Shown here one piece after another: positions 23,134 to 39,457 of a stretch of 41,438 bases of DNA. Each line of letters begins with the position of its first letter. The first letter of the stretch is position 1. Source of the stretch: Psychrilyobacter piezotolerans (GTDB lineage Bacteria > Fusobacteriota > Fusobacteriia > Fusobacteriales > Fusobacteriaceae); the NCBI RefSeq assembly GCF_003391055.1, contig NZ_QUAJ01000025.1:1-41438 (forward strand). The letters are read 5' to 3'. Both the position numbers and the translations under genes were made by a program. A model generated the notes under the pieces. The model ran no database searches and was not told where the DNA came from. It worked only from the letters and a program-made list of their open reading frames with translations.

Positions 23134-23442
23134 CTCTCACTCCCTTATTTACCTCTTTTATCTTCTTTAGTTATTTTATCAACCTTTATAAAAAAAGACA
23201 ACTTTTAAAAGGTTCTGTTCTGCCTGCTATAGAAGAAACATAAACTTTCATTTATAACACTAATTTCATTTCTAAGCAATTCTAGATTCTAATCATAATA
23301 TTTAGAAACTTATTACAGTCTTAAAAGTCATAGTGACCCAGCTAAAAAAGGAAAAATAGATTCAGTTTATCTGCTTAACCTTTAAGATATTAAGATAAAA
23401 CTTTACTTTCGAAATCACCCAGGGTGATAAAGGTCCTTGTGC

Positions 23443-23540
23443 TTCAAACATAGAAACTGTATAATTATGTAAAATTTTGAGTATTCAAAGTGGTAGAAAT
23501 TTCTACCACTTTTTTATTTGTTATTTTTAGGATATTAAAT
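23443..23540 (+). repeat. Direct repeat, copy 1 (upstream of binding protein)
   Basis: About 98 bases, roughly 90 percent identical by eye to 24733-24829. Shared parts include ACTGTATAATTATGT, TTTTGAGTATTCAAAGTGG and TTTTAGGATATTAAAT. Each copy has a perfect TATAAT followed about 25 bases later by a terminator hairpin. Confidence 0.85.
23487..23517 (+). terminator. Terminator inside repeat copy 1
   Basis: A perfect 26-base palindrome, AAAGTGGTAGAAA joined to TTTCTACCACTTT, runs into a T-run. There is no upstream + strand gene for it to terminate; a TATAAT lies at 23460-23465. Confidence 0.8.
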
Positions 23541-23675: not shown

Positions 23676-24698
23676 ATGAAAAAATTAACGAAAATTTTAA
23701 ATTTAGTACTGGCACTGTCACTTCTATTGGTTGCAGCTTGTGGAAAAAATGATGAAATACCTGCTCAAAGCAATGAAGTCACGGTATATTCACCACTTTT
23801 CCCCGATGCTATCAATAGTGTTGTTGATGGTTTTACAAACAAAACAGGAATCAAGGTTAACCTAGTTGTAGCAGGTACTGGAGAATTACTTAAAAGAATC
23901 CAAGCTGAAAGTGAGAATCCTTTAGGGGATGTTATTTTTGGAGGAGGAGCTGAATCACTGAATTCATACAAAGAATATTTCACACCATATCAAACTGCAA
24001 ATCACGATAAGATAAATCCTTTATTTAAAGATTCTAAAGACAAATGGTTTGGTTTTGCTGTCTTACCTATGGTTATGATCTATAATACTGATCTTGTAAC
24101 GAAGGAAGACGCTCCTACTTCTTGGAACGACCTGATCGATCCCAAATGGAAGGGGGAAATTGCTATGGCCTCTCCTGTTAAATCCGGATCATCTTATACA
24201 ATCACGGCGACTCTTTTGACTGCCTTTGGAAAAAACTCTGAAGCTGGTTTTGATTTCATCAAAAAATTTGTAACTAACTTGGATGGGAAGATTTTAGGAG
24301 GTTCATCTGCTGTACCTAAAGGTGTAGTAGATAAGGAATACTCTATCGGATTAACTTTGGAGAGTTCTGCTGTTAAATATAAAAATGCCGGCGGACATAT
24401 AGAAATAGTGTATCCATCTGAAGGTACCTCTGTCGTTGCTGATGGTGCCGCTTTAATTAAAGGTTCTGAGAATCAAGAAAATGCTAAATTATTCTTAGAC
24501 TATGTAGGAAGTAAAGAGGTTCAAGAAATTTTAGCTACAAAGTTTAATATCAGAGGAGTTAGAACCGATGTTGCTCTTCCAAAGGGATTAGGACCAATTT
24601 CAGATATCAAACTACTTGACTATGATTTTGACTGGGCATCTAATAGTAAAAAAGATATCGTTAAAAGATGGAAAAATATAGTTTCAGGAAAGGAGTAA
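23676..24698 (+). CDS. Orphan ABC substrate-binding lipoprotein (AfuA/FutA-like)
   Basis: 340 aa extracellular-solute-binding protein. It has a lipoprotein signal peptide with lipobox LVAAC (Cys22), then a type-2 periplasmic-binding fold: VTVYSPLFPD, GDVIFGGGAES near residue 91, VMIYNTDLV near 134, SWNDLIDPKWKGEIAMA near 149 and a C-terminal KRWKNI. This pattern is that of the Fe(III)/phosphonate/hexose-phosphate binding proteins (AfuA, PhnS). Its ligand cannot be decided. No permease or ATPase gene adjoins it, so it must use a transporter elsewhere or act as a sensor partner. AGGGAG is upstream of the ATG. It is framed by direct repeats and terminators. Confidence 0.87.
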   Translation: MKKLTKILNLVLALSLLLVAACGKNDEIPAQSNEVTVYSPLFPDAINSVVDGFTNKTGIKVNLVVAGTGELLKRIQAESENPLGDVIFGGGAESLNSYKEYFTPYQTANHDKINPLFKDSKDKWFGFAVLPMVMIYNTDLVTKEDAPTSWNDLIDPKWKGEIAMASPVKSGSSYTITATLLTAFGKNSEAGFDFIKKFVTNLDGKILGGSSAVPKGVVDKEYSIGLTLESSAVKYKNAGGHIEIVYPSEGTSVVADGAALIKGSENQENAKLFLDYVGSKEVQEILATKFNIRGVRTDVALPKGLGPISDIKLLDYDFDWASNSKKDIVKRWKNIVSGKE

Positions 24699-24732: not shown

Positions 24733-24829
24733 TTGCAAACATAAAAACTGTATAATTATGTTAAATTTTGAGTATTCAAAGTGGTAGAATTTCTACCACT
24801 TTTTTATTTGCCGTTTTAGGATATTAAAT
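24733..24829 (+). repeat. Direct repeat, copy 2 (downstream of binding protein)
   Basis: Partner of 23443-23540, separated by about 1.3 kb that contains only the binding-protein gene. It starts 35 bases after that gene's stop codon and supplies its terminator. Confidence 0.85.
24778..24807 (+). terminator. Terminator of the binding-protein gene
   Basis: AAAGTGGTAGAA and TTCTACCACTTT form a stem followed by T6. It is the same hairpin as at 23487 with one base pair less. Confidence 0.85.
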
Positions 24830-37261: not shown

Positions 37262-37909
37262 TTAAATTTTAATATATTCCTCTAGTTTTTTTCTGTCTAG
37301 AATTTTGATAATTTTATTTTCTCTGATTATTAATTTTTTTTCCTCTAATTTTTTTACAGCACTATATAAACTTTTTCTGTCAATACTGAGTATTTCACTG
37401 AGAAAGGACATATTTTTAAATCTAAACTTATCATCTGTGGAATAGGTCAGTATATTGTGAGCTAAAAACTTTTTTACTCCCTTAAAGTGTAGGATGGAAA
37501 TATCCCATACAAATTTATGCAGCTTTTCACAGTGAAGTTTCAATAAAAAAATTTTAAATTTATCATTTTTAATCAATTTTATTCCAATATCAAGTGGAAT
37601 TTCTAAAATTTTCGTTTTATCTCTTATGGTGTAAAAATCCACCCCTCCTTCCTTTCCAAAGAGTAATTTTTTCTCTCCAACGACATTAAAGTTATCCAAT
37701 AAGATATAATTTAAATCAACTCCATCCTGAGTAGTTTGTTTTATTTGGATCATTCCCTCAATAAGAAAAAAAGTAGAGTTTAGTTCTTTCTCTGAATAAT
37801 GAAAGTATTCTCCAGATGATAGATTTAATATTTTTAATCTATTTGTGTATTTTTGAGGAATAAAATCTTTTAGTGGAGTTTTCCCTATAATTTCAATGAT
37901 TTTTTCCAC
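37262..37909 (-). CDS. Crp/Fnr-type transcription regulator
   Basis: 215 aa. The N-terminal cyclic-nucleotide-binding-like beta barrel (residues 1-120; LSSGEYFHYSEKE, FFLIEGMIQIK near 47-60) is followed by a C-terminal helix-turn-helix at about 165-200 with MSFLSEILSIDRKSLYSAVK. There are no cysteines for a Fnr-type iron-sulphur cluster: the single cysteine (LHCEK) is in the linker helix. So it is more likely YeiL-like or a ligand sensor. GTG start with GGGAGGTGA upstream. A perfect 26-base palindrome lies 40 bases upstream, between it and the divergent MATE gene, implying autoregulation and control of the transporter. Confidence 0.82.
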   Translation of the reverse strand: MEKIIEIIGKTPLKDFIPQKYTNRLKILNLSSGEYFHYSEKELNSTFFLIEGMIQIKQTTQDGVDLNYILLDNFNVVGEKKLLFGKEGGVDFYTIRDKTKILEIPLDIGIKLIKNDKFKIFLLKLHCEKLHKFVWDISILHFKGVKKFLAHNILTYSTDDKFRFKNMSFLSEILSIDRKSLYSAVKKLEEKKLIIRENKIIKILDRKKLEEYIKI

Positions 37910-37948
37910 GGCTCACCTCCCTATTTAGAGTATACCCCACAATTATCA

Positions 37949-37974
37949 AAAACTGTAGAATATTCTACAGTTTT
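37949..37974. promoter_or_regulatory. 26-bp perfect palindrome, likely Crp/Fnr operator
   Basis: AAAACTGTAGAAT joined to ATTCTACAGTTTT is fully self-complementary. It overlaps the likely promoter of the regulator, whose minus-strand GATAAT box is at 37943-37948, and is 119 bases before the MATE start codon. It is not followed by a T-run on either strand, so it is a DNA-binding site rather than a terminator. Confidence 0.78.
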
Positions 37975-38092
37975 ATCTGGAATTTATCTCTATACTTTGC
38001 TTGAACGTCTGAAGTTTCATAATAATTTTATCTAGGTATGATCTTTATGAAAGTTTGAATGCAGTTTATAGAAATTAAAGGAGAATTATATT

Positions 38093-39457
38093 ATGAACAA
38101 AGAATGGATACTTAAAGAGGAAAAAATACCCAGAGCACTGCTTAAATTATCACTGCCTGCCATCGTTGGGATTTTAATATCTGCCATATATAATGTAGTG
38201 GATACACTATTTGTCGGAATGTTAAATGATACCCGTGCAATAGGAGCTATTGCTGTTTCCTACCCGTTATTTATGCTGATAGCAGCCTTAGGACAGATGA
38301 TTGGTGTTGGCGGAGGGAGTATGATCTCCAGATTTTTGGGAGCACAGGATAAAAAAAGTGCAGATATCACATTTAATCTATCCATAGGTTTAGGGATCAT
38401 TCTTTCGGCAGCCGCGACTATTTTTGGGGTGGTATATTTAGAACAGATATTAAAGGTTGTAGGAGCAACTCCTACAATCCTACCCTATGCAAAGACATAT
38501 ACATTGATTATCATTTTAGGTACTTTTTTCACTGTCATCAATATGGTTTTAAATAATACTATTAGAGCAGAGGGAAACAGTAAATATAGTATGTGTGCCA
38601 TAGGGTTGGGAGCAGTTTTAAACATTATTTTAGATCCTATCTTTATCTTTGTTTTAAATTTTGGAATAAAGGGAGCTGCTATTGCCACAGTCATTGCACA
38701 GTTTATTTCAACTTTATTTTTATTAAAATACTATTTTTCAAAATCCAGCCTTTTAAACCTGTCTTTTAAGAAGTTTTTATTTAAAAAATCTATCTTTTAT
38801 AGTATTTTAATTGTTGGGCTGCCATCATTTTCCAGACAGGTTTTAGTGAGTGTATCCATGGCAGTGTACAACAATGCATTGGAAGTTTACGGAGATACAG
38901 CCATTGCTGCTGGAGGGATTGCCATGCGTGTTGTTTCTATTATTATGTTTACCCTCTTTGGATTTGCCCAGGGGTTCCAACCTTTGGTAGCTTATAATTA
39001 TGGACGGGAAAACTATTCACGTATAATAGAAGCTTTCAGAGTATCTCTTATATGGGTCACTATATATAGTATAGTTTTAAACCTTATGTATATAATATTT
39101 TCCGATGAAATTATAAAAATATTTTCATTGGATGCTGAAGTGATTAAATTAGGGCGGTTAAATCTTTATTCTTTAAATATTTTCTTCTTTACATTCGGAG
39201 TTACTACCACTGTAACTACTCTCTATCAATCTTTAGGAAGAGGCCGGGACAGTTTTATATTAGCCAGTTGTAGAAACGGTTTTTTCTTCATTCCTCTAGT
39301 GTATATTCTAAATTATAAATTTGGACTGGGGGGTATAATCGCAAGTCATGCTGTGGCAGACTTATTAGCAGGGTTATTCACCCTTTACTATATTGTTAAG
39401 ATAAAAAAAGAAATAAAAAAAGCAACGAGGCATTGCATCCAGACAGGGATAAACTAA
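38093..39457 (+). CDS. MATE-family efflux transporter
   Basis: 454 aa with twelve predicted membrane helices in two similar halves. The MATE start PRALLKLSLPAIVGILISA and GMLNDTRAIGAIAVSYP are followed by GGGSMISRFLGA near 75 and GFAQGFQPLVAYNYGRENY near 290. It exports drugs or metabolites using Na+ or H+. AAAGGAG precedes the ATG. Its divergent neighbour is a Crp/Fnr-type regulator with a palindrome between them, suggesting inducible efflux. Substrate unknown. Confidence 0.9.
   Translation: MNKEWILKEEKIPRALLKLSLPAIVGILISAIYNVVDTLFVGMLNDTRAIGAIAVSYPLFMLIAALGQMIGVGGGSMISRFLGAQDKKSADITFNLSIGLGIILSAAATIFGVVYLEQILKVVGATPTILPYAKTYTLIIILGTFFTVINMVLNNTIRAEGNSKYSMCAIGLGAVLNIILDPIFIFVLNFGIKGAAIATVIAQFISTLFLLKYYFSKSSLLNLSFKKFLFKKSIFYSILIVGLPSFSRQVLVSVSMAVYNNALEVYGDTAIAAGGIAMRVVSIIMFTLFGFAQGFQPLVAYNYGRENYSRIIEAFRVSLIWVTIYSIVLNLMYIIFSDEIIKIFSLDAEVIKLGRLNLYSLNIFFFTFGVTTTVTTLYQSLGRGRDSFILASCRNGFFFIPLVYILNYKFGLGGIIASHAVADLLAGLFTLYYIVKIKKEIKKATRHCIQTGIN

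What the first reader, a model, noticed from the sequence alone, without database searches (positions are those of the whole stretch)
37949..37974. 26-bp perfect palindrome between a Crp/Fnr regulator and a MATE pump
The site differs from the known CRP (TGTGA/TCACA) and FNR (TTGAT/ATCAA) consensus; its half is CTGTAGAAT. The regulator has no iron-sulphur cysteines. It may define a new specificity in which an unknown signal controls efflux.
Basis: partly seen in the sequence, partly recalled or inferred. Interest (0 to 1): 0.6.

Follow-up and report, generated by a model that had tools for sequence, protein, structure and literature searches.

The report
Conserved operator between regulator and pump
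In the marine bacterium Psychrilyobacter, a perfectly mirrored stretch of DNA between a switch protein and a drug-pump gene is kept almost unchanged across species, so it is very probably the landing site through which that switch protein controls the pump and itself; this is a tidy new example of a known kind of control circuit.

Summary
The palindrome is real: AAAACTGTAGAATATTCTACAGTTTT, 37949-37974. It sits between a divergent Crp/Fnr-type regulator (37262-37909, minus) and a MATE exporter (38093-39457, plus). Regulator, pump and palindrome occur together at one syntenic locus in 5 Psychrilyobacter species; G056 (98% complete, same genus) lacks all three. Across the five loci 25 of 26 palindrome bases are invariant, against 37 of 82 flanking bases (Fisher p = 1e-6); the one change is at the centre. 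A TATACT -10 box lies on each side at fixed distance: centre at -41.5 for the pump and about -39.5 for the regulator, with no -35 box on either side. This is class II activator geometry. The site has ordinary Crp-family architecture (TGTAG-N6-CTACA beside CRP TGTGA-N6-TCACA) and contains the NtcA core GTAN8TAC exactly. The recognition helix fits: Arg180 is kept with G3, while Glu181 is Lys and Arg185 is Ser where the site changes GA to AG. No second convincing site was found, so control is probably local. The signal is unknown; the CRP cAMP-phosphate Arg/Ser and the Fe-S cysteines are absent.

The parts
37949..37974 (.). 26-bp perfect palindrome, proposed operator for the Crp/Fnr-type regulator (core TGTAG-N6-CTACA at 37954-37969)
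   Evidence: 25/26 bases invariant in 5 orthologous loci; single exact or near-exact copy in each genome that carries it
37262..37909 (-). Crp/Fnr-type regulator, 215 aa, GTG start; recognition helix R178-K179...S183 (CRP R180, E181, R185)
38093..39457 (+). MATE family exporter, 454 aa
   Evidence: Pfam MatE E=1.5e-50; TIGR00797 above cut-off
37991..37996 (+). TATACT, predicted -10 box of the MATE promoter; palindrome centre at -41.5
   Evidence: conserved sequence and spacing in 5 species; consensus match only
37929..37934 (-). TATACT, predicted -10 box of the regulator promoter; palindrome centre about -39.5. Part of the invariant ATTGTGGGGTATACT, 37929-37943
   Evidence: conserved sequence and spacing in 5 species; consensus match only
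37914..37921 (-). GGGAGGTG, likely ribosome-binding site of the regulator
   Evidence: sequence
38077..38083 (+). AAAGGAG, likely ribosome-binding site of the MATE gene
   Evidence: sequence; AAGGAG conserved in 5 species

Best explanation
The palindrome is the shared operator of a two-gene divergon. A homodimer of the adjacent Crp/Fnr-type regulator binds TGTAG-N6-CTACA, one recognition helix per half-site. Bound there it lies at -41.5 of the MATE promoter, which has a good -10 box and no -35 box, so it most likely activates the pump by class II contacts with RNA polymerase. It also covers the -35 region of its own promoter (centre about -39.5), giving autoregulation of uncertain sign. The signal is unknown; cAMP and an Fe-S cluster are unlikely. 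Shown here: the palindrome, its conservation, synteny and geometry, the helix substitutions, and the absence of a second convincing site in the genomes searched. Inferred: binding, direction of control, effector.
For: Palindrome 25/26 invariant in five orthologous loci against 37/82 for the flanks, p = 1e-6. Regulator, pump and site are present together in G000, G054, G058, G059, G060 and all absent from G056, which is 98% complete. Both TATACT boxes are at fixed distance in all five species, centre -41.5 and -39.5, with no -35 hexamer. NtcA-activated promoters have the same class II layout with GTAN8TAC at -41.5 (PMC3898017). Helix alignment to CRP: R180 kept, E181 to K, R185 to S. The family rule R180 with G3 and E181 with A6 (PMC1274295) fits a site that keeps G3 and loses A6. 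None of the four other Crp/Fnr relatives detected in G000 has the R-K-S combination. CRP residues R82 and S83 are not kept; one cysteine only.
Against: No binding, expression or effector data. The -10 boxes are consensus matches, not mapped start sites, and the promoter scan did not call them. The regulator-side spacing is 2 bp off the ideal class II distance, so repression there is equally possible. Only five orthologues are known, and two of them (G054, G058) are close (95% identical flanks). The specificity argument rests on one site per genome.
Confidence: 0.72

Rival explanations
1. Same operator and same regulator, but acting as a repressor: the dimer blocks RNA polymerase at one or both promoters until a pump substrate or stress signal releases it, as TetR- or MarR-type local regulators do for MATE pumps.
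For: A local regulator of a MATE pump elsewhere is a repressor (FepR for FepA, PMC4154695). The site overlaps the -35 region of both promoters.
Against: Neither promoter has a -35 hexamer that could work without help, and the -41.5 spacing to the pump -10 box is the usual activator position.
Confidence: 0.2
2. The palindrome is the operator of a different, unlinked regulator; the neighbouring Crp/Fnr gene is only a co-target.
For: Adjacency is not proof of binding. At least four other Crp/Fnr relatives exist in the genome.
Against: The site is present only where this regulator is, and single-copy. Its spacing is Crp-type, the helix R-K-S pattern fits the base changes and is not found in the four relatives.
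Confidence: 0.06
3. The palindrome is a structural element (bidirectional terminator, RNA hairpin or cruciform), not a protein site.
For: Any perfect palindrome can form a hairpin, and the arms end in A/T runs.
Against: The genes diverge, so no terminator is needed there; none was called; the predicted start sites lie outside it on both sides. Strict base conservation, with the only change at the dyad centre, fits a protein site better than a stem.
Confidence: 0.02

Closest known systems
NtcA of cyanobacteria (site GTAN8TAC)
   Same: Crp/Fnr superfamily; site contains GTAN8TAC exactly; centre at -41.5 over a -10 box (PMC3898017). NtcA structures are among the best fold matches.
   Different: NtcA is a global nitrogen regulator with many sites; this is a local regulator with one convincing site, in Psychrilyobacter. 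Only 14-17% identity in the Foldseek matches. 2-oxoglutarate binding not tested.
CRP (CAP) of E. coli, site TGTGA-N6-TCACA
   Same: Fold, site register and spacing, Arg at position 180 with G3 in the site.
   Different: E181K and R185S with TGTAG instead of TGTGA; cAMP-contacting R82 and S83 not kept; local instead of global.
HcpR and other local Crp/Fnr regulators (PMC1274295)
   Same: Crp/Fnr regulator next to or divergent from its target, small regulon, site changes that follow residues 180 and 181.
   Different: Target is a MATE exporter instead of the hybrid cluster protein; half-site TGTAG is not among the HcpR motifs quoted there.
FepR-FepA of Listeria (PMC4154695)
   Same: A MATE pump with its own local regulator.
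   Different: FepR is not a Crp/Fnr protein and is a repressor.

Membership tests
Crp/Fnr superfamily | N-terminal cyclic-nucleotide-like beta-roll, long dimerisation helix, C-terminal winged HTH | tested here: met
   AlphaFold2 model with these elements in order; Foldseek probability 1.00 to CRP and NtcA; profile E about 1e-18 to CRP chains. Single-sequence Pfam scores fall just below gathering.
CRP (cAMP-responsive main cluster) | RE(T/M)VGR recognition helix and TGTGA-N6-TCACA site | tested here: not met
   RKSLYS helix and TGTAG-N6-CTACA site; motif quoted in PMC10127613
CRP (cAMP-responsive main cluster) | R82 and S83 that hold the cAMP phosphate | tested here: not met
   Gly and Val at the aligned positions
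FNR (Fe-S) | N-terminal cysteine cluster | tested here: not met
   one cysteine, C127, in the dimer helix
FNR (Fe-S) | TTGAT-N4-ATCAA site | tested here: not met
   site is TGTAG-N6-CTACA
NtcA | GTAN8TAC site centred near -41.5 | tested here: met
   GTAGAATATTCTAC is present; -41.5 relative to the predicted pump promoter
NtcA | 2-oxoglutarate response and nitrogen regulon | not tested
   no effector data; the only linked target is a MATE pump, so it is not filed as NtcA
Class II activator-dependent promoter | activator centre near -41.5 with -10 box and no -35 box | tested here: inconclusive
   sequence geometry fits for the pump promoter; start sites not mapped

The most novel reading that the evidence does not exclude
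An uncharacterised Crp/Fnr subgroup confined to Psychrilyobacter, with an R-K-S recognition triad reading TGTAG half-sites, senses a non-cyclic-nucleotide, non-Fe-S signal (perhaps through the conserved His/Cys-rich LHCEKLH stretch of the dimer helix) and directly activates a dedicated MATE exporter.
Probability: 0.3. Interest if true: 0.45.

Novelty: new member of a known kind. Interest (0 to 1): 0.3.

Why it matters
It gives a well-defined, testable regulator-operator pair. It extends the known link between Crp/Fnr recognition-helix residues and site bases to an E181K/R185S pair. It also suggests a MATE pump under a dedicated Crp/Fnr activator, where the local MATE regulator found in the literature here is a repressor.

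Tried and rejected
A wider regulon: hits with 2-3 mismatches in G000, G054, G058 and G056 whose context was read fall mostly inside coding genes or in terminators. Intergenic exceptions (L002, L005, L091, L092) were single hits not found as orthologous sites; L091 lies at the 3' end of another MATE gene. The second 26-bp palindrome (23487-23512) shares GTAGAA/TTCTAC but belongs to a dispersed repeat with a T-run, so it was not taken as an operator of this regulator. Orthologues outside Psychrilyobacter: none close among 98 genomes of the phylum; remote relatives at 21-38% identity have other neighbours or other palindromes. Literature search for the exact 16-mer: no paper. No paper on a Crp/Fnr regulator of a MATE pump was found in the open-access library, which does not hold most subscription journals. 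One annotated-region call with a dummy accession was wasted.

Full report
Observation. The sequence at 37949-37974 is AAAACTGTAGAATATTCTACAGTTTT, a perfect palindrome of 26 bp. It lies in the 183-bp space between two divergent genes: a 215-aa Crp/Fnr-type regulator on the minus strand (37262-37909) and a 454-aa MATE exporter on the plus strand (38093-39457). From base composition a palindrome of this length is expected about 0.002 times in the window. The window does hold another (23487-23512), so length alone was not taken as proof.

Organism. A locus 88% identical in the regulator comes from a Psychrilyobacter metagenome-assembled genome (L016) and corresponds by coordinates and identity to G059, which belongs to the window's own genus. 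The window is therefore Psychrilyobacter or very close.

Conservation. Orthologues (84-88% identity) exist in four other genomes of the genus, G054, G058, G059 and G060, and in none of the other genera among the 98 genomes of the phylum searched. In all five the MATE gene is divergent from the regulator with the palindrome between them. In an ungapped 108-bp block, 25 of 26 palindrome positions are invariant against 37 of 82 flanking positions (Fisher p = 1e-6). The single change, in G054, is at the dyad centre (CTGTAGAACATTCTACAG). G056, 98% complete and in the same genus, has no orthologue of the regulator or pump and no exact site; G055 and G057 are too incomplete to count.

Promoter geometry. 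On each side of the palindrome a TATACT is conserved at a fixed distance in all five species. If these are -10 boxes starting at -12, the palindrome centre lies at -41.5 for the MATE promoter and -39.5 for the regulator promoter. No -35 hexamer is present at either; the hexamers at 17 bp spacing are CAGTTT and TACAGT, which are parts of the palindrome itself. This is the layout of class II activator-dependent promoters, as described for NtcA with GTAN8TAC at -41.5 (PMC3898017). The palindrome is upstream of both predicted start sites, so it is not in those RNAs, and no terminator was called.

Regulator. Single-sequence Pfam scores are weak (HTH_Crp_2 E = 2.5e-5, cNMP_binding E = 0.0016, both below curated cut-offs), but a profile of 15 relatives matches CRP chains at E about 1e-18. 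The AlphaFold2 model (mean pLDDT 84) matches CRP and NtcA with Foldseek probability 1.00, though TM-scores near 0.5 and large rmsd show that the relative placement of the domains differs or is uncertain. Aligned to CRP, the recognition helix has R at 180, K at 181 and S at 185 (the DNR and 1o5l alignments give the same register). CRP residues R82 and S83 are Gly and Val here, and there is one cysteine. cAMP sensing and FNR-type Fe-S sensing are therefore unlikely. The effector is unknown.

Specificity. Written in CRP register the site is cTGTAG-N6-CTACAg beside the CRP-like wTGTGA-N6-TCACAw. A comparative study of the family found that residue 180 correlates with base G3 and residue 181 with A6 (PMC1274295). 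Here R180 and G3 are both kept, while residue 181 and base 6 have both changed, as have residue 185 and base 5. None of the four other Crp/Fnr relatives detected in G000 has this combination. This supports the regulator as the protein that reads the palindrome. It also shows that the site is a variant of the normal family architecture; its GTA-N8-TAC core is that of NtcA.

Scope. Scans for the core with up to 2 or 3 mismatches gave no second convincing site. The near matches whose context was read are mostly inside genes or in terminators and do not recur as orthologous promoter sites. The control is therefore probably local: one operator for the pump and the regulator.

Verdict. A real, conserved operator of a small self-contained divergon. 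Shown: presence, conservation, co-inheritance, geometry, helix substitutions. Inferred: binding by the adjacent regulator (about 0.9), activation of the pump (about 0.7), an unknown non-cAMP signal. It is a new member of a known kind with a slightly unusual specificity and target.

Noticed in passing
window 23420-23530 and 24736-24810: Dispersed repeat of about 100 bp with about ten or more copies in the genome, several near contig ends, two of them flanking an ABC substrate-binding protein gene (23676-24698). It holds a second perfect 26-bp palindrome AAAGTGGTAGAAATTTCTACCACTTT followed by a T-run; no Rfam or tRNA match.
   Followed up: partly
L028 1220-1237, L029 2412-2429, L033 2275-2292: Tandem Crp/Fnr paralogues in two Psychrilyobacter genomes (G054, G058) have a perfect palindrome CACTGTATACAGTG between them, possibly the operator of another regulator of this family with a different specificity.
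   Followed up: no
window 37929-37943: ATTGTGGGGTATACT upstream of the regulator is invariant in five species, longer than a -10 box needs; only one exact copy in each of three genomes searched.
   Followed up: partly
window 37262-37909, regulator residues 126-131 (HCEKLH): A His/Cys-rich stretch (LHCEKLH) in the predicted dimer helix is identical in all five orthologues and could be a metal, haem or redox site.
   Followed up: no
L009 and L010 near 1501 (G000 contig C36): Two identical CTGTGGAATTTTCCACAG hairpins with T-runs lie about 2.2 kb apart; they look like duplicated terminators.
   Followed up: no
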